Assembly (NCBI GenBank): GCA_018267545.1
Contig: JAFDYG010000031.1
Coordinates: 1-64,000 of the forward strand
Origin: Bacteroidota bacterium
GTDB lineage: Bacteria > Bacteroidota > Bacteroidia > Chitinophagales > Chitinophagaceae
Reading direction: 5' to 3'
Length of the DNA: 64,000 bases
Position numbers and translations under genes: made by a program. A model generated the notes under the pieces. That model saw only the letters and a program-made list of their open reading frames with translations. It searched no databases and had not been told where the DNA came from. Positions 41,742 through 61,414 of the stretch are shown piece by piece. Numbering within the stretch: position 1 is the stretch's first letter; each line of letters begins with the position of its first letter.

Positions 41742-43946
41742 CTACGCGGTGGTCGCGATCACCTTTTTTTCTTCCCCGTACTGCTTGAAGACCAGGGAAA
41801 TCTGTACGCCGGGGTTACAGGAGAACAGGAGGTCCCCCTCCAGCTGATCTGAAAAAAGCCGCATGAGCTGCATCCCCAGGGAGTTGTTGGCGTTAGGGTC
41901 GAAATCGGCGGGAAGCCCCGGCCCATTGTCCTTTATCTTAAGGCTGATACGGCTCCCGTTCACCTTGGAGAGCTGTATAAAAAGAGTCCCCACCTGATCT
42001 CCGGGAAAAGCGTATTTGATGGCATTGGTAACCGCCTCATTCAACATCAGACCCAGCGGCACCGCCTGTGAAATATCCAGGTTGATTTCTTCGATGTCCA
42101 GCTCGAACCTGACCTTCCAGGTATTCGTCAGGCTCGTGCTCAAAAACGTGATCATCTCCTCGATATAGGAGGGCATATTGATGACCGTCGTATTGTCGGC
42201 CTGGTATAATTTCTGGTGGATGATCGCGATCGCCTGCATCCGCTCCCGGCTCTCCCGGATAGCCCGGATCGCCGAAGGACTGTCCAGGTACTCGGACTGC
42301 GTATTCAACAGGCTGATTACTACCTGCAGGTTGTTCTTCACGCGGTGATGTATCTCCTTGACCAGCCACTCCTTCTCTTCCAGCAGCTTCTTCTGCGCCG
42401 AGAGCAGTTCCTTCAGCTGCTCATTCTGCCGGTTGATCTCCTCCTGGTGGGCGCGCAGCTTTGCATTGCTCCGCTTCTTGAACTGGTAGCCGGTGAAGAG
42501 CAAGGCCGACAGGACCAGCGCCGTGACAATGATGATGTTCCGGGTAATACCCGCCTTCTTCAGACTCACTTCCTGCAGCTGGTTCTGACTCGTCAGCAGC
42601 TCGATGTGCTGCTGCTTCTTCTCCGTCTCGTAGATGACCTGCATCTGGGCAAACTGCATATTCTTTGATACGCTGGTCATCGAATCGGCCATATTCCTGG
42701 CTAGCTGAAAGTGCTGTAAAGCGGCGCGATAATCGCCAAGCCCCGAATCCGCCCGGGACTTTAGCTGATAAGCCCAGGCGACGCTTCTCTTGTTCTTGTA
42801 TATTTTTGCATAATCGATCAGCTCCGACGTGTATTTGTCCGCAAGCTTGTATTGTCCCGTGGCCAGATAATAATTGCTCAGCGTCTGTATGGCGAAATGA
42901 ATGTCGATACCCTTTTGCCTGCACAGGGGCATCTGTTTTATAATCTCGTTGGCATAAACCCCAGCCCTCGCATATTGCTTCCCGGCCACATAGGGGACCA
43001 CGTAAAAACAGCTCCAGTAAAGGCTATCCTCGGTGCTTTTTGACCGGATGCTGGCTTCCGCGGTCTGAAACAATCGTAACGTCTCCTCCCATCTCGGGTC
43101 ATACATGACCCTATAGCAGATATTTAAAATCACCGTCTCGATATAGTCCGCATCGTGATACTTCATGGCGATAGCCAGCGCCTTTTTCAAATATACCATG
43201 GCTTCGGGGTTCTTCCCCCAATTCCCATAAGCTACCCCCAGCCGGCTGTAGATCGTGCACAGCTGCAGGGTCGTATCCCCCATGGCCTCGGCCGTCTGAG
43301 CAGCCAGCAGCCCATACTTGACGGCGCCCGGGTAATCGGCCAGGTTGGTAGAGGTTATCCCCAGCAGGTCATAGACTCCATGCAGCGATTTATATCCAAC
43401 CGATTGGTACAAGGCCAGCGCCTCACGCAGATTGACCATCGCCTCGCCATAATTACGAAGCAGCTGGTTGTAATCGGCAATGTCTTTCAAAACATCCGCC
43501 TGCCGCTCTTTGAGCCCGACCTGCCGGAATTGCGCCAGCGCCTGCTGCAAACACTCCTTCCGGCTCGTCCATCCCGCATCGTTCCCATCGTAATAGTTGA
43601 CCCGCTCCAGGTAAGCCTCGCCGGCATCTGCACTGGCCGGTAACCCCTTGAACAGAGCAAGCGCTTTATCGGTTAGTTCCCGGCCCTTCTCCCGGTATCC
43701 CTTCTCCCGCAAAGCCTTGGCTTTAACGATCAGCGTCCGCGCCTGTAAAGGAACATTCCCCTTGCTCAAAACGTCCGCCTGCCCGATCAGCAACAGCGCG
43801 CTATCAAGATCGATTTTGTTTTCCCCCGGTCTGTTTACATATGAGAGGGCCGTCTGGAGCAATGACTTGGCCCGATTGGTATCTTGTGCTACTCCAGAAA
43901 AGACAAATGCTACAAATAAGCAAAAAAGCAGGATATGCTTGCGCAT
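41742..43946 (-). CDS. TPR-containing sensor histidine kinase (HisKA_2 type)
   Basis: The ATG at 43946 (MRKHILLFCLFVAFVFSGVA, signal peptide) gives 734 residues. A periplasmic region of tetratricopeptide repeats (about 25-460, for example LGVAYGNWGKNPEAMVYLKK) is followed by a membrane helix (about 475-495, IIIVTALVLSALLFTGYQF). A coiled coil comes next, then the HisKA_2 dimerisation helix KEIHHRVKNNLQVVISLLNT with the phospho-His near residue 533, and an HATPase with NEAVTNAIKYAF and DNGPGLPAD. The cognate regulator may be the response regulator at 45250 or one elsewhere; the AraC gene lies between them. Confidence 0.9.
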   Translation of the reverse strand: MRKHILLFCLFVAFVFSGVAQDTNRAKSLLQTALSYVNRPGENKIDLDSALLLIGQADVLSKGNVPLQARTLIVKAKALREKGYREKGRELTDKALALFKGLPASADAGEAYLERVNYYDGNDAGWTSRKECLQQALAQFRQVGLKERQADVLKDIADYNQLLRNYGEAMVNLREALALYQSVGYKSLHGVYDLLGITSTNLADYPGAVKYGLLAAQTAEAMGDTTLQLCTIYSRLGVAYGNWGKNPEAMVYLKKALAIAMKYHDADYIETVILNICYRVMYDPRWEETLRLFQTAEASIRSKSTEDSLYWSCFYVVPYVAGKQYARAGVYANEIIKQMPLCRQKGIDIHFAIQTLSNYYLATGQYKLADKYTSELIDYAKIYKNKRSVAWAYQLKSRADSGLGDYRAALQHFQLARNMADSMTSVSKNMQFAQMQVIYETEKKQQHIELLTSQNQLQEVSLKKAGITRNIIIVTALVLSALLFTGYQFKKRSNAKLRAHQEEINRQNEQLKELLSAQKKLLEEKEWLVKEIHHRVKNNLQVVISLLNTQSEYLDSPSAIRAIRESRERMQAIAIIHQKLYQADNTTVINMPSYIEEMITFLSTSLTNTWKVRFELDIEEINLDISQAVPLGLMLNEAVTNAIKYAFPGDQVGTLFIQLSKVNGSRISLKIKDNGPGLPADFDPNANNSLGMQLMRLFSDQLEGDLLFSCNPGVQISLVFKQYGEEKKVIATTA

Positions 43947-44026
43947 AATGGACGAGAAAATAGCAAATTTTTTGCATGTGACCCGGCAGCAGCGATAAAA
44001 ACCCAGTAACGGCGATAAAATCGACA

Positions 44027-44869
44027 TTAAAACCGATGAAACTTCTTGCGAAAGTCCAGCGGCGAACACTCCGCACTGTTGGTAAAAAAGCGGACAAAGT
44101 ACGCCGGGTCCTCATACCCCAGCGCGTACCCCACCTCCTTCACCGTCATCTCCGTATGCGCCAGCAAACGCTTCGCTTCGAGTAAAATCCGCTCCTTGAT
44201 CAGGTCGTTCGGCGTCACGGAGCTCACCTGCGCAATACGCTTGCTCAACGCCTTGGGCGTCATGTTCAGCATCTCCGCATAGTCCGCCACCGCATGCTTG
44301 GTCTTGAAATACCGGTCGATCAGCTGGCTGAACTTCCGGATGATATCCACCTCCGCTGCATCCTGCCCCGCCAAACCTTCCTTTCCCTTCTTCCACATCC
44401 GCGTGCTGCGGATAATGATCTGCTTGAGCAGCACCCGCAGCATCTCCTCCATCACGAAGTCCTTTTCCGCCAGCTCTTCCTTCATTTCCTCGAAGATCTT
44501 CCCATACAGCCCCGACTGGGCTGAGTCCAATTCCACAAAGGGCACCTCAAAAACATTATGATACAGGATGCCGTCACAGGCGACTTCCTTATCATGAATC
44601 TCGATACAATAAAAATCACGGTTGTAGGAAAGAAGGATCCCCGCAGACATCGGGTCCTTTACTCGAAACCACTGACCGGGACCTATAAAGAAGACCGTAT
44701 CCCTTGCCAGCTCATAATGATTGAACTCCAAATCCAGCACACTCCCCTTCGTCAAAAACAAGATCTTGATAAACTCATTGAACAGGGGCTTGTTCGCCTT
44801 CTCGGCTTCCTCCAGCCCAAACTCCATAAAGCCAAACTTCTTATACTCGAATTCCTGTAGTGGATACAT
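44027..44869 (-). CDS. AraC-family transcriptional regulator
   Basis: The ATG at 44869 (MYPLQEFEYKKFGF) is preferred to a TTG at 44884; the product has 280 residues. The N-terminal cupin-like part (VLDLEFNHYELARDTVFFIG, GQWFRVKDPMSAG) is a ligand-binding domain. The C-terminal AraC domain has helices VADYAEMLNMTPKALSKRIA and VGYALGYEDPAYFVRFFTNS. The response regulator ends about 20 bases before this ATG, so the two may be co-transcribed. It precedes the TPR kinase gene by 80 bases. Confidence 0.88.
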   Translation of the reverse strand: MYPLQEFEYKKFGFMEFGLEEAEKANKPLFNEFIKILFLTKGSVLDLEFNHYELARDTVFFIGPGQWFRVKDPMSAGILLSYNRDFYCIEIHDKEVACDGILYHNVFEVPFVELDSAQSGLYGKIFEEMKEELAEKDFVMEEMLRVLLKQIIIRSTRMWKKGKEGLAGQDAAEVDIIRKFSQLIDRYFKTKHAVADYAEMLNMTPKALSKRIAQVSSVTPNDLIKERILLEAKRLLAHTEMTVKEVGYALGYEDPAYFVRFFTNSAECSPLDFRKKFHRF

Positions 44870-44890: not shown

Positions 44891-45250
44891 TCACCCGCAA
44901 GCCCTCGTAATCAACCCCACCAGCCTGTCCAGGTCAAAAGGCTTCTCTATAAAATAATCTGCGCCGGCCTCCACCGCCAGACGAGCCACGTCCTGATTCG
45001 CGCTGAAAAACACGATCGGCAGCCGGCCGAACTCCTCCGAACCCTTAAGCTCCCTCGCGGCACTAATCCCACCCACCGGAGGTATCTTATTATCCAGCAG
45101 CACCACATCCGGTGAAGCTTCCCGCACCTTACCCACGACATCCTCACAGCTGCCCAGCGCAACTACCTCGAAACCGCTCGTCTCCAGCACAATCGTACAC
45201 ACTTCCAGGATGTCTGCATCATCATCGAAAATCAATACACGTTTCTTCAT
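44891..45250 (-). CDS. Single-domain response regulator
   Basis: A 119-residue receiver domain with no output domain: VLIFDDDADILEV for the acidic pocket, phospho-acceptor D53 in VVLLDNKIPPVGG and the conserved Lys in IEKPFD. It is divergent from the stressosome operon (99 bases between ATGs) and upstream of the AraC gene. It is a plausible phospho-acceptor for the histidine kinase at 48049-49248, which would make it the output element of that module. Alternatively it serves the TPR kinase at 41742-43946. Confidence 0.9.
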   Translation of the reverse strand: MKKRVLIFDDDADILEVCTIVLETSGFEVVALGSCEDVVGKVREASPDVVLLDNKIPPVGGISAARELKGSEEFGRLPIVFFSANQDVARLAVEAGADYFIEKPFDLDRLVGLITRACG

Positions 45251-45349
45251 ACCGGTTACTTTAATCCCGGAAAATTAATCCTTTATACTGGAAATAGCCT
45301 ACATTTATGCCCAACCTTCTCTTTTAACGGGTTAGAAAAAACTAAAACC

Positions 45350-46219
45350 ATGGCGCTCGACATTACCAAGATTTTAAAATCTAAAAAGAAATCCCTTTTC
45401 GAGGACTGGATGAAGAACCAGCTTTCGAACGAGGGTCTCAGGGAAGATCTGGTCAGCAATGAGGATTTACGAGCACAGTCCGAAGAACTGATCAACATCC
45501 TGCTGCAAACACTGACCCCCGAAAATCTGAGCGACCCATCCTCAGCCTCCTTCGACCCCGTTCTCGAAATACTCTCCGGCATCGCCATCGTCCGGGCCCA
45601 GCAGGGCTTTAGCCCAAGAGAAACCGGTCTGTTTGTCATCAGCCTCAAGGAAGCGCTGTTAGCCCGCTTACAGGAAGAGGTAAAGGACAACCCCATCGCC
45701 ATCTTTGAAGAAAGCCTGAAGCTGAACCGCGTCATGGACCACTTCATCATCAACAGCTTCGAAACCTTTATAAAGGGACGCGAAGAAGTCATCCTCCGCC
45801 AGACCGACGAGATCGCCGAGATCTCGACCCCGGTCATCCGCATCTGGGACGGTATCCTCGCCCTGCCCATCATCGGCACCCTGGATAGCTCGCGCACCCA
45901 GATCATCATGGAAAGCCTGCTCAACGAAATCGTCGCCACCGGCAGCAGCATCACCATCCTGGATATCTCCGGTGTACCCGCCGTAGACTCCCTGGTCGCA
46001 CAGCACCTGATCAAGACCGTCAGCGCTACCCGCCTCATGGGTGCAGAATGCATCATCAGCGGCATCCGCCCCGAGATAGCACAGACCATCGTTCACCTGG
46101 GGATCGAATTGACCAATATCGTGACCAAGGCTACCCTGGCAAGCGCTTTGCGATATGCATTCCAGACGCTCAACCTTCAGGTAAGAAAGGCTGGAACTCA
46201 AAATGCTACAAACCAATAA
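45350..46219 (+). CDS. rsbR: Stressosome scaffold protein RsbR
   Basis: A 289-residue RsbR-type protein. The N-terminal globin-like sensory domain (about 1-150) has no haem or flavin motif that I can identify. A linker helix (about 150-165) leads to a C-terminal STAS domain: PIIGTLDSSRTQIIMESLLN, LDISGVPAVDSLVAQHLIKT and SGIRPEIAQTIVHLGIELTN, nearly the text of Bacillus RsbRA. The two phosphorylated Thr of RsbRA (T171, T205) align with S180 and S214. It is the first gene of the operon rsbR-rsbS-rsbT-fusion-kinase. In the stressosome, RsbR and RsbS build a large shell that holds RsbT until stress. Confidence 0.92.
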   Translation: MALDITKILKSKKKSLFEDWMKNQLSNEGLREDLVSNEDLRAQSEELINILLQTLTPENLSDPSSASFDPVLEILSGIAIVRAQQGFSPRETGLFVISLKEALLARLQEEVKDNPIAIFEESLKLNRVMDHFIINSFETFIKGREEVILRQTDEIAEISTPVIRIWDGILALPIIGTLDSSRTQIIMESLLNEIVATGSSITILDISGVPAVDSLVAQHLIKTVSATRLMGAECIISGIRPEIAQTIVHLGIELTNIVTKATLASALRYAFQTLNLQVRKAGTQNATNQ

Positions 46220-46244
46220 ATTAAGTCACTAATCGCTCTTGGCA

Positions 46245-46649
46245 ATGGATAAAATTCCAATCCTGAGAATGGGCCCCTTCTTATTAGTAACCATCCAGGT
46301 CGATCTGTACGACCGGCTGGCGCTGAATCTGGAGGCCGATCTGGTTCAAATGGTAAGTAAAACTGGCGCGAAAGGCGTGTTGATCGATATCTCTGCCGTA
46401 AGCATTGTCGACTCTTTCATGGGTCGCATCATCGGCAATATCGCCAACATGTCCCGTATCCTCGACGCCGAAACCGTGGTCGTAGGCATGCAGCCCGCTG
46501 TAGCCATTACGCTCGTCGAGCTGGGACTTCCTTTGAAAGGAGTCTACACCGCACTGGATGTTGAAAAAGGAATGAATCTTTTACGCTCGAAAATTAGTCT
46601 CGTCGAAGACGAAGACGTAAACGAAGAAGATGATAATATCCCTGTCTAA
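46245..46649 (+). CDS. rsbS: Stressosome antagonist RsbS
   Basis: The ATG at 46245 gives 134 residues, close to the 133 of Bacillus RsbS; an in-frame TTG six bases earlier is less likely. The single STAS domain reads IPILRMGPFLLVTIQVDLYD, GVLIDISAVSIVDSFMGRII, AETVVVGMQPAVAITLVELG. The phosphorylation site corresponding to RsbS S59 is S57 in IVDSFMG. An unusual acidic tail (EDEDVNEEDDN) is added and overlaps the start of rsbT by 20 bases. RsbS holds RsbT on the stressosome until RsbT phosphorylates it. Confidence 0.93.
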   Translation: MDKIPILRMGPFLLVTIQVDLYDRLALNLEADLVQMVSKTGAKGVLIDISAVSIVDSFMGRIIGNIANMSRILDAETVVVGMQPAVAITLVELGLPLKGVYTALDVEKGMNLLRSKISLVEDEDVNEEDDNIPV

Positions 46650-47043
46650 GGATGTAGTTATCATACAAAGAGAGCAGGACGTCGTCCTGTTCCGCAATCG
46701 CGTCAAAGAATTCGCCACAAAGATCAAGATGGGGCTCGTCAACCAGACGAAGCTCATCACCGCAGCCAGCGAGCTGGTCCGAAACATGATCCGCTACGCA
46801 GAAGGCGGCGACATCAGCATCGAGGTCGTCTCCAAAGGTCGGGAAAACGGCATCCGGCTTACCTTCAAAGACACCGGTCCAGGCATCGCCGATATCCAGC
46901 TGGCGATGAAAGACGGATATTCTACCGGAAAAAGTTTAGGCCTGGGTCTGCCCGGCGCCAAAAGATTGGTCAACGACTTCAACATTACGAGCGAGGTGAA
47001 CAAAGGCACGGTCGTAACAATCATAAAGTGGGCGAATGGTTAA
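46630..47043 (+). CDS. rsbT: Stressosome kinase RsbT
   Basis: A 137-residue GHKL serine/threonine kinase. E48 and N52 in ITAASELVRNMIRYAEGGDI form the N-box, D81TGPGI binds the adenine, and the flexible lid ends in GLGLPGAKRLV (about 104-114). The match to Bacillus RsbT (132 residues) is close along its entire length. It overlaps rsbS by 20 bases and the next gene starts 8 bases before its stop. Once freed by phosphorylating RsbR/RsbS, it would act on a downstream partner; here the likely partners are the next two gene products. Confidence 0.93.
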   Translation: MIISLSKDVVIIQREQDVVLFRNRVKEFATKIKMGLVNQTKLITAASELVRNMIRYAEGGDISIEVVSKGRENGIRLTFKDTGPGIADIQLAMKDGYSTGKSLGLGLPGAKRLVNDFNITSEVNKGTVVTIIKWANG

Positions 47044-48046
47044 ATCACACTATAGGAGCTTCCGTGCCGACGACAGAAGCTACTTTGCACTAATAAAAAA
47101 GGACGTTCATGCCACCGTAGTCACAGCAGGCTTTGACGAGGTCAAGGTGGGCAAGATCGACATCGTGCTCTCCGAAATAACCTCGAACCTGAGCAAATAT
47201 GCCAAAGGAGGCGAGCTGCTCGTCGGCCTGGGAAGAGATACCGGCGGACAATACGTCGAGATCGCCTGCATCGACCGGGGACCGGGAATACCCGACGTCA
47301 GCCGCGTGCTGGCGGACGGCTACTCCTCCGCCAGCACCCTGGGGCACGGTCTTGGAAGCATCAAACGCCTCTCGGACCAGTTCGATATCTATTCGCTCAA
47401 AGACTGGGGAACCATCCTGCTGTCCCGGATTTACAGCGACGACCAGCCTACCTTCCGTAAAAAGAAATTCGACTGCCAGGGCCTGAACGTACCCAAATCC
47501 GGCGAGACCGTCAGCGGCGACGGCTTCTGCCTCAAGGAAACAAAGGACGGCTTCCGTATCCTGGTCGCCGACGGCCTTGGACACGGAGTCGACGCCAACG
47601 AAGCCGTCAGGAAAGCCTGCGAAGCTTTCATGGCCTGTACCGAAGAAAGCCCCACCGAAATCATCCGCTCCATGCATTCCCAAATCCGTAAGACCAGGGG
47701 GGCCGTAGGTTTAGTCATCAACTATGACACCAAAGCCCGGCAATGGAAAATGGCCGGCGTCGGCAACATCGCCGCCCGCTGGATTGGGGCCTCCAATACC
47801 CGGAATTATATCTCCTATAATGGGATTATCGGCTACAATATACCCGGCACTATGAACGACCAGGTCCTGTCCCAGGAAGAATTTACCCGTTTCATCGCCT
47901 GCTCGGACGGCGTCCGCTCCCGGTGGGACCTCCTGAAGCTCCCCAACCTGCTTCAGCACCATGGAATCATAATTGCTTCTGCCCTATATAAAGAATTTAG
48001 CCGCGGGACAGACGATGTATCCGTAGTAGTGTGTAAATCAATGTAA
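47036..48046 (+). CDS. RsbT-like domain fused to RsbX-like PP2C phosphatase
   Basis: A 336-residue fusion. Residues 1-135 are a second RsbT-like GHKL domain with intact N-box (E47, N51), D80RGPGI and GHGLGSIKRL. Residues about 145-336 are a SpoIIE/RsbX-type PP2C phosphatase: SGDGFCLKE (about 160), ILVADGLGHGVDANEA (about 176), CSDGVRSR (about 289) and a final GTDDVSVVV. In Bacillus RsbX resets the stressosome by removing phosphates from RsbR and RsbS; the attached RsbT-like half would target the phosphatase to the same complex. It overlaps rsbT by eight bases and precedes the kinase gene by two. Confidence 0.9.
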   Translation: MVKSHYRSFRADDRSYFALIKKDVHATVVTAGFDEVKVGKIDIVLSEITSNLSKYAKGGELLVGLGRDTGGQYVEIACIDRGPGIPDVSRVLADGYSSASTLGHGLGSIKRLSDQFDIYSLKDWGTILLSRIYSDDQPTFRKKKFDCQGLNVPKSGETVSGDGFCLKETKDGFRILVADGLGHGVDANEAVRKACEAFMACTEESPTEIIRSMHSQIRKTRGAVGLVINYDTKARQWKMAGVGNIAARWIGASNTRNYISYNGIIGYNIPGTMNDQVLSQEEFTRFIACSDGVRSRWDLLKLPNLLQHHGIIIASALYKEFSRGTDDVSVVVCKSM

Positions 48047-48048
48047 CT

Positions 48049-49248
48049 ATGACAGAAATTACGCGGGTTTCGCTGGAGAACGAGATGGACATAGTCGTAG
48101 CGCACAAACGTATGATTGGCGTAGCCCAATTCTTTTACCTTACACTTTCTACTCAGTCGACCATCGCCACCGCCGTTGCCGAAGTAAGCCGCGTAGTTAT
48201 CGATAAGACGGACCAGGGCTGGCTCTCCATCGGCATAGAAAAGACCGGCGACAAGTTCTCCCTGATCGGCCAGATCGCTTTCCCTTCCCAGGTCGAAGTC
48301 CGGTCCTCGGAAGAAGGACTAAAATATGCTCAGCTCCTGGTTCCCGAATTCAAGTTCGACAAACAAAAGGACGCCAGCATTGTCCAGGTGGGCATCGGCA
48401 TCCCCCGCTCGCTCAAGGTCTCCGATACAAGGGTAAACGAAGCGGCCGAATTCTTCCGGGTTACCCAACCCACCCCCCCCTACGAAAAGCTCAAGCTCCG
48501 CAACAACCTCCTGAACCAGCAGGCCATCGAAAAAGACGAAGAGTTGAAACATAGCCGCATCCTCGACGAAAAAAAGAACGAATTCATCTCCGTCGCCAGT
48601 CACGAGCTAAAGACACCCCTCACCTCGATCATGGCCTTTACAAAGCTGGCCGTTGCCGCCAGCCAGACCGAAGCTACCCCAAAGATCCAGCACTACCTCG
48701 ATAAGATCGACCACCAGGTCTTCAAGCTCCACCAGCTCATCCAGCAGCTGCTGGACATCTCCAAGATCGAATCCGGGAAGCTGGACTATAACATGCAGCG
48801 GCAAGACTGGAACGGCTATATGGTCGACATGATGCCCATTCTCGAACACCTGGTCCCCTCCCACAAGCTCTCCTGGCAGCCCTGCACGGCAGCGGTCCTG
48901 GTCAGCATGGACATCCTTCGTATCGAACAGGTCCTCACCAATCTCGTCGGCAACGCCGCCAAATACTCCAACCCCGATACCGCAATCGCTATCCAATGCT
49001 CCAGCGACGAAGACAACCTCACCGTTTGCGTCCACGACGAAGGCATCGGTATCTCCCCCCAGAATCTCGACCGACTTTTCGATAAATATTTCCGCGAAGA
49101 AGCCGTCGCCGACAAATACAGCGGCTTCGGTATGGGCCTCTACATCACCTCCGGCATCGTCCGCGAGCACAAGGGCGCTATCTGGGCGGAAAAAAATAAG
49201 GAAGCCGGCTCATCCTTTTATTTCACCCTGCCCCTAAGCAAGGTCTAA
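48049..49248 (+). CDS. Sensor histidine kinase with degenerate RsbT-like N-terminus
   Basis: A 399-residue cytoplasmic kinase, last gene of the stressosome operon. Residues 1-about 135 resemble RsbT but lack the ATP site: TAVAEVSRVVIDKTDQGWLS keeps the Glu and has Val for the N-box Asn, and the glycine-rich lid is lost. A coiled coil (about 150-178) leads to a HisKA domain with phospho-H185 (ISVASHELKTPLTSIM) and an HATPase with NLVGNAAKYSN, DEGIGISPQN and SGFGMGLYI. No membrane helix or PAS is present, so the input is probably docking on the stressosome through the pseudo-RsbT domain. The partner is unknown; the receiver at 44891 is nearby. Confidence 0.9.
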   Translation: MTEITRVSLENEMDIVVAHKRMIGVAQFFYLTLSTQSTIATAVAEVSRVVIDKTDQGWLSIGIEKTGDKFSLIGQIAFPSQVEVRSSEEGLKYAQLLVPEFKFDKQKDASIVQVGIGIPRSLKVSDTRVNEAAEFFRVTQPTPPYEKLKLRNNLLNQQAIEKDEELKHSRILDEKKNEFISVASHELKTPLTSIMAFTKLAVAASQTEATPKIQHYLDKIDHQVFKLHQLIQQLLDISKIESGKLDYNMQRQDWNGYMVDMMPILEHLVPSHKLSWQPCTAAVLVSMDILRIEQVLTNLVGNAAKYSNPDTAIAIQCSSDEDNLTVCVHDEGIGISPQNLDRLFDKYFREEAVADKYSGFGMGLYITSGIVREHKGAIWAEKNKEAGSSFYFTLPLSKV

Positions 49249-58311: not shown

Positions 58312-58431
58312 CTTATCTGTCCCAATTTATCCATTGGGATGGAGTTGGCACCTTACTTTCCACTTGCAGAGCAAGCTTTAGCAGGTTGTCAAGGCTTCAA
58401 CGGGCCATTTCCCTCAGCCTTTCTTGATAAG
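58312..58431 (-). ncRNA. SAM-I riboswitch (S-box) aptamer
   Basis: Read on the minus strand the leader starts CTTATCAAGAAAGGCTGAGG and closes with GATAAG, giving the P1 helix. Internal S-box signatures are present: GAGGGAAATGGCCC, TTGAAGCC, GACAACC and GGTGCCAACTCC. It precedes the gamma-synthase, QueF-like and homoserine dehydrogenase genes. Binding of S-adenosylmethionine should favour the downstream terminator (58238-58270) and shut off the operon when methionine is plentiful. Confidence 0.93.
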
Positions 58432-58451
58432 AGATGTTGTAAGAACTGCGG

Positions 58452-58484
58452 CAAAGATAGCATCCAATTTTTCATATTTCCAAA
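58452..58484 (-). promoter_or_regulatory. Promoter of the methionine operon
   Basis: On the minus strand TTTG (58481-58484), a 21-base spacer and TATCTTTG (58452-58459) match the Bacteroidota -33/-7 pattern (TTTG, TAnnTTTG). Transcription would begin about ten bases before the SAM aptamer, a sensible arrangement. Confidence 0.65.
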
Positions 58485-58618
58485 TTCACCCCGGAATTTT
58501 TTACCCGCCGATACCCCAAAACGGTCATTTTCACCCCCTTTACACTTCGATTAACAATTGGATAACCAAACTATCCTACCCCTTGGAAATAAATTACTTG
58601 AATAAAAGTTTAAGGCTC

Positions 58619-61414
58619 ATGTTTCACCTCAAGAAGCTACTAAGGTATGCGATCGGCCTCCTGGCTGTCGCCCTGCTTTTCAACATATTGGGTTACGTCT
58701 ATATCCGTTATCAATCCCGTGAAAACGACCGCCAGGAAGAAAACGAAAAGATCGCCGGAAACCTCCAAACCCTCAGCCAGCAGGTAGCCAAAGACGTTCT
58801 ATTTCTCTTGGTCGACCAGAACCACCAGCTTCGCCCCCTCGGCCTCGACGACGAGCTCCAGTCCACCCTCAGGGACTTCGAAACAAAACAGACCTTCCTC
58901 CGCCACGAAATCGAACGCCCCAAAGCCCAAACCACCGACGCCCTCCAGGGCCTCCATCGCATATACACGAAGATCGACCCCTTCTATCTCCGCCTTGACT
59001 CCCTCGCACACGTCGTCACTTCCGCTACCGCCGCCGCAAACCCTACCACCACAAACCCCGCCTCCCCCACCTCCCTCACAGCCGCCCAGGCCGCCTCCCT
59101 TTCCGCCCAAATCCGCTACAACGAATCCCACTACCTCGAAGGCATGCAAGACATCGCCCGCATCTACCGCAACGTAGATAACGGCTTCGTCAATAAAATC
59201 TTCTTCGCCAACACCGGCATCCTCACTTCCCTCATCTTCGCCATCATCATCATGGCCGTCTTCGTCATCATTCCGGTGATCAAACAAGGCGACAAAAACT
59301 ACCGCGAACTCAAAATCTCCCTCCACAAAGTCCGCGAGTCCGAAGCCGCCCTCCGACGCCGCGACCAGCAGCTCCAAACCCTCGGCGCCGCAACCCACCA
59401 GCTCATCGGCAGCCTCGACTTCAAGGCCGCGATGAAAGAAGCCCTCAGCCTGCTCGGCCCTCCCATGGGCACCGATCGCATGAGCATCTACCAGATCGTC
59501 TCCGACCAGGCTGTCCGCCTCGTCCACTGGAACAAAAACGGCCTCGATATCTACCCCGCCGGCGTAGAAAATATTTCACTCGACTCCATGACCGGTATCA
59601 TCGAAATCCTGCAGCAAAACGAAGTCTTTACAGCCGCCGCATCCGAAGCGCCATCGCAGCTAAAGGAATGGCTCCACAAAACACAAACAAAATCCGTCAT
59701 CGCCATCCCCATCTTTGCCATGGGTGAGCTCTGGGGATACCTCGGTCTCTCCAACCGCAGCGACGACCTCCAATATAACGCCGCCGACTATTCCATCCTC
59801 CGCTCCTTCGCAGCCAGCCTCGGCTCCGCCATCGAACGCTCCCGTATGGAAGACCAGCTCGTCCTCGCCAAAGAAGCCGCAGAAGCCGGCAGCCGCGCCC
59901 GCAGCGAGTTCATGGCCAATATCAGCCACGAGCTCCGTACTCCCATGAACGGAATCATCGGCTTCTCCGACCTCCTCCTGGCCACCACCCTCCAGGACAC
60001 CCAGCGCGAATACATCCGCCACGTCAGCAAATCCGCCTATAGCCTGCTAAGTATCATCAACGACATCCTCGATTTCTCGAAGATAGAAGCCGGTAAATTT
60101 TTCTTCGAACACATGGCCTTCGACCTCAACGAGCTCGTCGGCGACGCCGTCGACATTCTCTCGATCAAGGCCTTCGAAAAGCAGCTCGAGCTCATCTGCG
60201 ACATCGACCCCGACCTCCCCGCCCGCGTCTGGGGCGACCCCCTGCGCATCCGCCAAATCCTCGTCAACCTACTCGGCAACGCCATCAAGTTTACCGAGAA
60301 AGGAGAGGTCAGCATCGCCGTCCGGGCGACATACCAGCAAACACAAAAACTACAATTGCTTATCACCGTTAAGGACACCGGCATCGGCATTCCACCGGAG
60401 AAAATAAACCGCATCTTCGAGTCTTTCACGCAAGCCGACTCTTCCACTACCCGCAAATACGGCGGCACAGGCCTCGGCCTCACCATCTCCAAAAGCCTCG
60501 CCGAGCTCATGGGTGGCCACCTCACCGCCGAAAGCGAACCCGGCAAAGGCAGCACTTTCTTCCTGCAGCTCGAGCTCGAGATCGCAGAAGATACACCCGC
60601 CGAAACGCCCCTGCAAAAAGTGCCGCTGCACAGGGTTCTCGTCATCGACGACAACGCCGCCAACTGCCGCCTCATGCAAGGCATCTTCAGCCACTTTCAC
60701 ATCGCCTGCGACGTGACCCAAAGCGGAGAAGAAGCGCTCTCGCTAATAGCAAACGCAAAGGAAAACTACGACCTCATCATCACCGACCACCACATGCCCG
60801 GGATGGATGGCATCAGTCTCGTAAAAGAAATAAAGAACAAGCTCCACGACCACTCCGAACCGTTTATTCTCATGCTCTCCTCTCTCGACAAATCCCAACA
60901 CCGCCAGGAAGCAAAAGACGCCGGCATCGATCGCTTCCTGCCCAAACCCGTCAAGATCAGAGAGCTCAGCAACCTGATCGGCTCCATCTTCAACAAACCC
61001 GAAACCGCCGCGGCGACAACGACAAAGACTGCCTTCGAACAATTTCCAAAAGAAACCCAGGTCCTCGTCGTCGAGGATGAACCCGTTAACATGATGTTAA
61101 TTTCAGAAGTGCTCAAAAACATGGGCGTACAGGTGATTCGAGCCGGCAACGGCAACGAAGCCCTGCAGCGCCTGAATGAAACTTCCCCCGATATCATCTT
61201 TATGGATATCAACATGCCCGAAATGGACGGCTATACCGCTACACGCCATATCCGCAAGCTCCCTTCCGCACAGCGCCGCATCCCCATCATCGCCCTCACC
61301 GCCGACGCTACCCGCGACGATAAGGAAAAGTGCCTGCATGCCGGCATGGACAACTTTGTTTCCAAACCCTTTCGCATGGATGAGATTACCAGTGTGCTAA
61401 AAAAATACTTATAA
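58619..61414 (+). CDS. Hybrid sensor histidine kinase with GAF and two receiver domains
   Basis: The ATG at 58619 gives 931 residues; a longer frame from 58424 runs antisense through the riboswitch promoter and is rejected. Helix one (about 10-30) and helix two (about 200-225, LTSLIFAIIIMAVFVIIPVI) flank a periplasmic helical segment of about 170 residues with an Ala/Thr/Pro-rich insert. A coiled coil and GAF-like domain (about 260-420) follow. HisKA has EFMANISHELRTPMNGIIGF, HATPase has NLLGNAIKFTEKG and DTGIGIPPEKI. Receiver 1 (VLVIDDNAANCRLM, DLIITDHHMPGMDG) and receiver 2 (VLVVEDEPVNMM, DIIFMDINMPEMDG) end the protein. No HPt domain is present, so an external phosphotransfer protein is expected. 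Confidence 0.92.
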   Translation: MFHLKKLLRYAIGLLAVALLFNILGYVYIRYQSRENDRQEENEKIAGNLQTLSQQVAKDVLFLLVDQNHQLRPLGLDDELQSTLRDFETKQTFLRHEIERPKAQTTDALQGLHRIYTKIDPFYLRLDSLAHVVTSATAAANPTTTNPASPTSLTAAQAASLSAQIRYNESHYLEGMQDIARIYRNVDNGFVNKIFFANTGILTSLIFAIIIMAVFVIIPVIKQGDKNYRELKISLHKVRESEAALRRRDQQLQTLGAATHQLIGSLDFKAAMKEALSLLGPPMGTDRMSIYQIVSDQAVRLVHWNKNGLDIYPAGVENISLDSMTGIIEILQQNEVFTAAASEAPSQLKEWLHKTQTKSVIAIPIFAMGELWGYLGLSNRSDDLQYNAADYSILRSFAASLGSAIERSRMEDQLVLAKEAAEAGSRARSEFMANISHELRTPMNGIIGFSDLLLATTLQDTQREYIRHVSKSAYSLLSIINDILDFSKIEAGKFFFEHMAFDLNELVGDAVDILSIKAFEKQLELICDIDPDLPARVWGDPLRIRQILVNLLGNAIKFTEKGEVSIAVRATYQQTQKLQLLITVKDTGIGIPPEKINRIFESFTQADSSTTRKYGGTGLGLTISKSLAELMGGHLTAESEPGKGSTFFLQLELEIAEDTPAETPLQKVPLHRVLVIDDNAANCRLMQGIFSHFHIACDVTQSGEEALSLIANAKENYDLIITDHHMPGMDGISLVKEIKNKLHDHSEPFILMLSSLDKSQHRQEAKDAGIDRFLPKPVKIRELSNLIGSIFNKPETAAATTTKTAFEQFPKETQVLVVEDEPVNMMLISEVLKNMGVQVIRAGNGNEALQRLNETSPDIIFMDINMPEMDGYTATRHIRKLPSAQRRIPIIALTADATRDDKEKCLHAGMDNFVSKPFRMDEITSVLKKYL

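What the first reader, a model, noticed from the sequence alone, without database searches (positions are those of the whole stretch)
44891..49248. Complete stressosome operon wired to two-component signalling in a Bacteroidota
RsbR, RsbS and RsbT, close in text to the Bacillus proteins, are followed in one tight operon by an RsbT/RsbX-like fusion and a cytoplasmic histidine kinase, with a single receiver protein divergent. No sigma factor, anti-sigma or anti-anti-sigma partner of the RsbU/V/W kind is present. RsbRST modules with non-sigma outputs are known in general terms; here the sequence suggests the output is a histidine kinase-receiver pair. The phospho-Thr sites of RsbRA are both Ser here (S180, S214).
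Basis: partly seen in the sequence, partly recalled or inferred. Interest (0 to 1): 0.72.

Follow-up and report, generated by a model that had tools for sequence, protein, structure and literature searches.

The report
Stress hub wired directly to kinase
A bacterium of the Bacteroidota carries the genes of a known stress-sensing protein cage, but its output enzyme, a histidine kinase, begins with a worn-down copy of the cage's own switch protein, which suggests that the enzyme plugs straight into the cage instead of waiting for a messenger.

Summary
In detail: a tight RsbR-RsbS-RsbT-(RsbT/RsbX fusion, 'TX')-histidine kinase operon at 45350-49248, with a divergent single-domain receiver. The draft genome shows no other STAS or SpoIIE protein and no RsbU_N over cut-off, so an RsbU/RsbV route is unlikely.

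The 20 family relatives found all keep the order (one cut by a contig start). The kinase core was exchanged (one clade rejected, p 0.00016) while the adaptor stayed. Seven of eight hand-picked plasmid operons of Deinococcus, Proteobacteria and Streptomyces also carry it on the output enzyme; in Streptomyces that enzyme is a phosphatase. Close kin of the window's receiver sit directly behind the kinase in eight Mucilaginibacter operons.

Best reading: three RsbT-derived domains (kinase, phosphatase, output) address one STAS cage. Docking is inferred. Stressosomes with kinase outputs were known; I found no account of an RsbT-type adaptor on the output enzyme. New variant of a known kind.

The parts
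44891..45250 (-). single-domain receiver (CheY-like), divergent from the operon, 99 bp from rsbR
   Evidence: PF00072 76.6 bits; groups with receivers directly downstream of the kinase in eight Mucilaginibacter operons, 41-51% identity (tree without support values)
45350..46219 (+). RsbR: RsbRD-type N-terminal sensor + STAS; putative phosphosites S180 and S214
   Evidence: PF14361 83.1 bits, PF01740 54 bits; Ser in 96 of 96
46239..46649 (+). RsbS: single STAS domain, putative phosphosite S59; likely real start ATG 46245
   Evidence: PF01740 30.7 bits; 71-84% identity to 12 relatives
46630..47043 (+). RsbT: GHKL switch kinase, intact ATP motifs
   Evidence: PF02518/PF13581; N-box Asn 97 of 97, D-x-G-x-G letters 96-97 of 97
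47036..48046 (+). TX: RsbT-like GHKL domain (about residues 1-135, motifs intact) fused to SpoIIE/PP2C phosphatase (RsbX-like)
   Evidence: PF13581 32.7 bits, PF07228 29.4 bits; motif conservation
48049..48408 (+). adaptor: degenerate RsbT domain at the N-terminus of the histidine kinase (residues 1 to about 120)
   Evidence: hhalign to RsbT profile 97.5% (96.6% without L051); AlphaFold2 pLDDT 92.4; best fold matches RsbW/SpoIIAB; no Pfam match at 0.1 and no NCBIfam match at 0.01
48574..48777 (+). HisKA phospho-acceptor domain of the kinase
   Evidence: PF00512 59.8 bits, residues 176-243; an SH[DE] motif in 21 of 21 family rows and 96 of 98 loci
48910..49239 (+). HATPase_c catalytic domain of the kinase
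   Evidence: PF02518 92.4 bits, residues 288-397

Best explanation
This is a stressosome whose output enzyme is built to address the cage itself. RsbR and RsbS (STAS proteins) form the cage; RsbT phosphorylates them on stress; TX resets them. The histidine kinase at the end of the operon carries an RsbT-type domain without an ATP site as a docking adaptor. I propose that this adaptor sits on the STAS surface that RsbT uses, so that phosphorylation or conformational change of the cage releases or re-orients the kinase dimer and switches its activity, with phosphate then passed to a single-domain receiver (in the window the divergent one). Shown: gene order, kinship and predicted fold of the adaptor, loss of its ATP motifs, retention of RsbT signature residues, persistence of the adaptor while the kinase core changed, receiver kinship. 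From knowledge of the family: cage, RsbT and RsbX roles. Inferred: docking on RsbS/RsbR, direction of the switch, phosphotransfer to this receiver.
Against: No binding data. No small receiver within 1.5 kb of 56 of 98 operons, so the phosphate acceptor may differ. In Variovorax the kinase in this position lacks the adaptor, so it is not strictly needed. RsbT itself matches kinase ATPase domains at 98.4%, so fold kinship alone would not single out RsbT; the case rests on the 0.5% control and the shared signature. The Streptomyces adaptor match is weak (21 and 17 bits) and on the longest branch. RsbT contacts in print come from RsbU binding and from docking models (passages of PMC12143880 and PMC9237128).
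Confidence: 0.55

Rival explanations
1. The adaptor binds RsbT, not the cage: RsbT released on stress pairs with the RsbT-like adaptor (GHKL-GHKL dimer) and activates the kinase, as RsbT does with RsbU.
For: RsbW/SpoIIAB-type kinases are dimers (recalled); kinases in related operons carry RsbU_N, an RsbT-binding domain, at the same place; T-T contacts on the cage are proposed in PMC9237128 (passage); in Moorella an RsbT-like kinase binds the output cyclase directly (passage of PMC7647112).
Against: The residues kept are RsbT's own signature, which fits mimicry of RsbT better than an RsbT receptor; in several lineages the adaptor keeps ATP motifs, as a STAS kinase would.
Confidence: 0.2
2. RsbT directly phosphorylates the histidine kinase as a transient substrate; the N-domain is only a dimerising spacer.
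For: [quoted passage not shown]
Against: Does not explain an RsbT-type domain with a conserved RsbT signature in 98 loci nor its persistence on different kinase cores.
Confidence: 0.1
3. The kinase is an independent sensor that merely sits in the operon; the N-domain senses a nucleotide or another ligand.
For: GHKL folds bind nucleotides (recalled); the one long kinase scanned also carries a PAS domain (L040).
Against: The N-box Asn is absent in 85 of 98 loci and a D-x-G-x-G string is found in the first 135 residues of only 3 of 98 (L051, L074, L095); strict operon linkage.
Confidence: 0.07
4. The output is a conventional sigma route: an RsbU/RsbV pair elsewhere in the genome, with the kinase as a side branch.
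For: The genome is about 95% complete in 553 contigs, so a gene could be missing.
Against: Only two STAS and one SpoIIE protein found in the genome, all in this operon; no RsbU_N over cut-off.
Confidence: 0.03

Closest known systems
Bacillus/Listeria stressosome (RsbRST-RsbX, RsbU-RsbV-RsbW-SigB)
   Same: RsbR/RsbS STAS proteins with the phosphosite positions, RsbT switch kinase, PP2C reset phosphatase
   Different: no RsbU/V found; RsbX-like phosphatase fused to an RsbT-like domain; output is a histidine kinase carrying a pseudo-RsbT domain; the RsbR sites are Ser (Thr in Bacillus is recalled)
RSTX modules with two-component or c-di-GMP outputs (Vibrio vulnificus and others, PMC9237108)
   Same: RSTX core followed by kinase/receiver genes, no SigB
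   Different: those surveyed there had a globin-coupled RsbR and a single-domain RsbX; the adaptor reported was RsbU_N in some and none detected in most; here RsbRD-type sensor, TX fusion and RsbT-type adaptor
RsbU_N-linked histidine kinases (Proteobacteria, PMC12143880 and PMC9237108; Bacteroidota loci L162, L163, L166 and, just below cut-off, L164 here)
   Same: a stressosome-addressing domain at the N-terminus of a histidine kinase behind the RST genes
   Different: RsbU_N is an RsbT receptor (four-helix bundle); here the domain is itself an RsbT homologue
RsbW / SpoIIAB anti-sigma switch kinases
   Same: predicted fold of the adaptor; these bind STAS proteins
   Different: the adaptor lacks the ATP motifs in the window and is fused to a histidine kinase; no sigma partner shown

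Membership tests
stressosome (RsbRST) module | RsbR with N-terminal sensor + STAS, RsbS single STAS, RsbT GHKL kinase in one operon | tested here: met
   RsbR aligns over residues 4-278 to the RsbR chain of 9o3z, E 4.5e-34
stressosome (RsbRST) module | conserved phosphorylatable residues in RsbR (two) and RsbS (one) | tested here: met
   S180, S214, S59
stressosome (RsbRST) module | megadalton RsbR/RsbS cage that sequesters RsbT | not testable with these tools
   needs purification and microscopy
SigB-type stressosome pathway | RsbU and RsbV downstream | tested here: not met
   no further STAS or SpoIIE protein and no RsbU_N over cut-off in the genome, about 95% complete
SigB-type stressosome pathway | RsbW and SigB downstream | not tested
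   not searched genome-wide; none in the proteins scanned around the locus
globin-coupled RSTX module (Vibrio type) | RsbR with globin-coupled sensor and single-domain RsbX | tested here: not met
   RsbRD_N sensor and TX fusion
RsbU_N output kinase | N-terminal RsbU_N domain | tested here: not met
   no RsbU_N in the window kinase at 0.1; the same scan finds it in L162, L163 and L166 and just below cut-off in L164; L165 not scanned
RsbT family (kinase N-domain) | GHKL switch-kinase fold | tested here: met
RsbT family (kinase N-domain) | RsbT sequence signature | tested here: met
   profile 97.5%; ten shared conserved columns
RsbT family (kinase N-domain) | ATP-binding N-box Asn and D-x-G-x-G | tested here: not met
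   Asn in 13 of 98, not in the window; D-x-G-x-G string in 3 of 98, not in the window; so RsbT-derived pseudo-domain, not an RsbT kinase
two-component histidine kinase | HisKA + HATPase_c with phospho-acceptor His | tested here: met

The most novel reading that the evidence does not exclude
Many bacteria outside the SigB world use one address system for the stressosome: three RsbT-derived domains, one free (kinase), one fused to the reset phosphatase and one fused to an exchangeable output enzyme (histidine kinase or PP2C), compete for the same STAS surface. The output enzyme is held and released by the cage directly, without a diffusible RsbT-RsbU step, and its adaptor lost ATP binding more than once.
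Probability: 0.42. Interest if true: 0.82.

Novelty: new variant of a known kind. Interest (0 to 1): 0.7.

Why it matters
[quoted passage not shown] A degenerate RsbT domain at the front of the output enzyme, kept while the enzyme behind it changes, gives a concrete and testable link, and Pfam and NCBIfam do not see it in the window protein. It also suggests that a switch kinase was turned into a plug.

Tried and rejected

Limits: the receiver tree and the first core tree carry no support values in my view; those are quick ones, on 137 columns with support 90 (adaptor), 73 (RsbT) and 99 (TX). The AU test used 59 rows with long branches among the background kinases. The gene-calling profiles were built from the 21 loci, so their matches in those 21 are by construction. 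Eight of the plasmid records with a match (99, 105) were opened, picked by hand over genera; this is not a survey. Of 282 relatives only the best 80 were returned.
Full report
WHAT IS THERE. The window is contig C244 of a 7.3 Mb draft genome in 553 contigs (94.7% complete). Two family genomes share contig lengths with Taibaiella lutea and a Chitinophagaceae MAG, and Taibaiella belongs to Chitinophagaceae, so the family is Chitinophagaceae by inference. Five genes on the + strand lie 2-19 bp apart or overlap: rsbR 45350-46219, rsbS 46239-46649, rsbT 46630-47043, TX 47036-48046, HK 48049-49248. A receiver gene (44891-45250) is divergent, 99 bp away. An AraC-type regulator and an alpha/beta hydrolase flank the set.

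DOMAINS. RsbR has an RsbRD-type sensor and a STAS domain; RsbS one STAS; RsbT a GHKL ATPase; TX a GHKL domain plus SpoIIE phosphatase; HK has HisKA and HATPase_c, and no Pfam family at 0.1 covers its first ~165 residues, nor any NCBIfam model residues 1-148 at 0.01. RsbR matches the RsbR chain of 9o3z over residues 4-278 (E 4.5e-34).

NO SIGN OF RsbU/RsbV. In the own genome STAS hits only RsbR and RsbS, SpoIIE only TX, and RsbU_N nothing above cut-off (best E 0.585). Sigma factors and RsbW were not searched.

WHAT WAS KEPT AND LOST. In 98 non-redundant loci the adaptor keeps D14 (98), E45 (97) and R48 (98), but the N-box Asn stands in only 13, and a D-x-G-x-G string occurs in the first 135 residues of 3 (L051, L074, L095; the place of the last two was not checked). 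Of 26 adaptor columns conserved at 80% or more (residues 8-51), ten share their letter with RsbT at 80% or more and four with TX; RsbT and TX share three, one of them the Asn (ungapped register from the N-box). TX's ATP motifs are intact in 97 of 98, the other being a gap. So the two copies diverged in opposite ways: TX kept the ATP site, the adaptor kept RsbT's other signature.

INTERMEDIATES. In L161 (same phylum, other family) the second gene behind R-S-T-TX, after a receiver-receiver-kinase, is a 458-residue kinase with an RsbT domain whose motifs are all there (86 bits to RsbT, 41 to the adaptor profile). L051 in the family keeps the Asn and part of the glycine loop. More distant Bacteroidota loci have a single-domain RsbX and kinases with RsbU_N instead (L162, L163, L166 over cut-off, L164 just below, L165 not scanned).

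CONSERVATION OF THE SYSTEM. RsbS occurs in 21 of 195 family genomes, the window's included, and 14 of 395 phylum genomes at E 1e-20, patchily: the three same-genus genomes listed have none. A kinase follows in 34 of 34 RsbS loci examined (21 family; 13 phylum): 29 with an RsbT-type adaptor, the other five the distant loci L162-L166. A genome-wide scan gave 282 relatives of the adaptor, 80 returned; 77 of these 80 have the complete order R-S-T-TX-HK, two are cut by contig ends and one has rsbT in two ORFs.

ADAPTOR STAYS, KINASE CHANGES. Kinases come in a short form (about 400 residues, 71 loci) and a long form (about 540, 27 loci); the long one scanned has a PAS domain (L040). The window's core scores a median 202 bits against short cores (n 70) but 83 against long cores (n 27), while its N-domain scores 120 and 87. 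Fifty other stretches of the window's own genome also match the core at E 1e-12 or better, the best at 137 bits in a different program. One clade of short and long cores is rejected (p-AU 0.000164; quick tree with long branches).

RECEIVER. A small receiver (170 residues or less) lies within 1.5 kb in 42 of 98 loci, and directly behind the kinase on the same strand in 31 of 98: 21 of 27 long, 10 of 71 short. Leaving the window out, there are 44 in 286 kb near the operon against 13 in 835 kb elsewhere. The window's receiver groups with those directly behind the kinase in eight Mucilaginibacter operons (41-51% identity); 19 of 21 receivers behind long kinases make a group of their own (no support values). 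So the pairing looks real, though optional by position.

BEYOND THE PHYLUM. With RsbS and the L161 domain as queries against plasmids (99 and 105 records with a match) I opened eight records. Seven of eight output genes carry the adaptor: Deinococcus radiodurans, D. psychrotolerans, Deinococcus sp. KNUC1210, Sphingomonas aliaeris and Paraburkholderia sp. D15 (58-74 bits to RsbT, ATP motifs largely intact), Caballeronia sp. M1242 (degenerate, 40 bits to the adaptor profile) and Streptomyces sp. Mg1 (degenerate and weak, 21 bits to RsbT). Variovorax has a kinase without it. In Streptomyces the enzyme is a SpoIIE phosphatase (139.8 bits), not a kinase. The order R-S-T-TX-output is seen in seven; in D. 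psychrotolerans only the output stretch was opened. In a tree of 42 domains adaptor, RsbT and TX-N are each one side of a branch (support 90, 73, 99).

READING. The anatomy is best explained by an output enzyme that addresses the STAS cage through its own RsbT-type domain. RsbT phosphorylates RsbR/RsbS, TX resets them, and the kinase is held or released. The docking is inferred. The chief rival is that the adaptor pairs with free RsbT. RSTX modules with kinase outputs are known (PMC9237108, section 10 read; a CheY-like gene beside the V. brasiliensis operon in PMC4976288, passages), RsbU_N-kinases are known (PMC12143880, passages), and an RsbT-like kinase that binds its output cyclase is known in Moorella (PMC7647112, one passage). 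An RsbT-type adaptor on the output enzyme I did not find in ten searches of the held library (listings seen).

Noticed in passing
L118 3604-5270 and 5329 onward (Sediminibacterium roseum): tandem duplication of rsbR-rsbS-rsbT in front of TX and kinase
   Followed up: no
L039 1706-3569 (script orientation, reverse complement of the fetched locus): two rsbR genes in tandem in front of rsbS
   Followed up: no
L054/L062, L055/L065, L066/L088: three Mucilaginibacter genomes hold two complete operons each
   Followed up: no
window 58424-61414: 996-residue hybrid kinase with HATPase and two receiver domains further along the same contig (locus L167)
   Followed up: partly
window 41742-44069, - strand: TPR + HisKA_2 kinase close to the AraC-type regulator beside the receiver
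   Followed up: no
L177 4962-6332 (Streptomyces sp. Mg1 plasmid): a SpoIIE phosphatase with a degenerate RsbT-type N-domain behind R-S-T-TX
   Followed up: partly
L163 13370-13783 (script orientation, reverse complement of the fetched locus): 137-residue ORF on the opposite strand with a weak match (21 bits) to the adaptor profile, perhaps an RsbW-like protein
   Followed up: no
L172 7986-8857: rsbR of Paraburkholderia sp. D15 is annotated as two pieces, sensor and STAS apart
   Followed up: no
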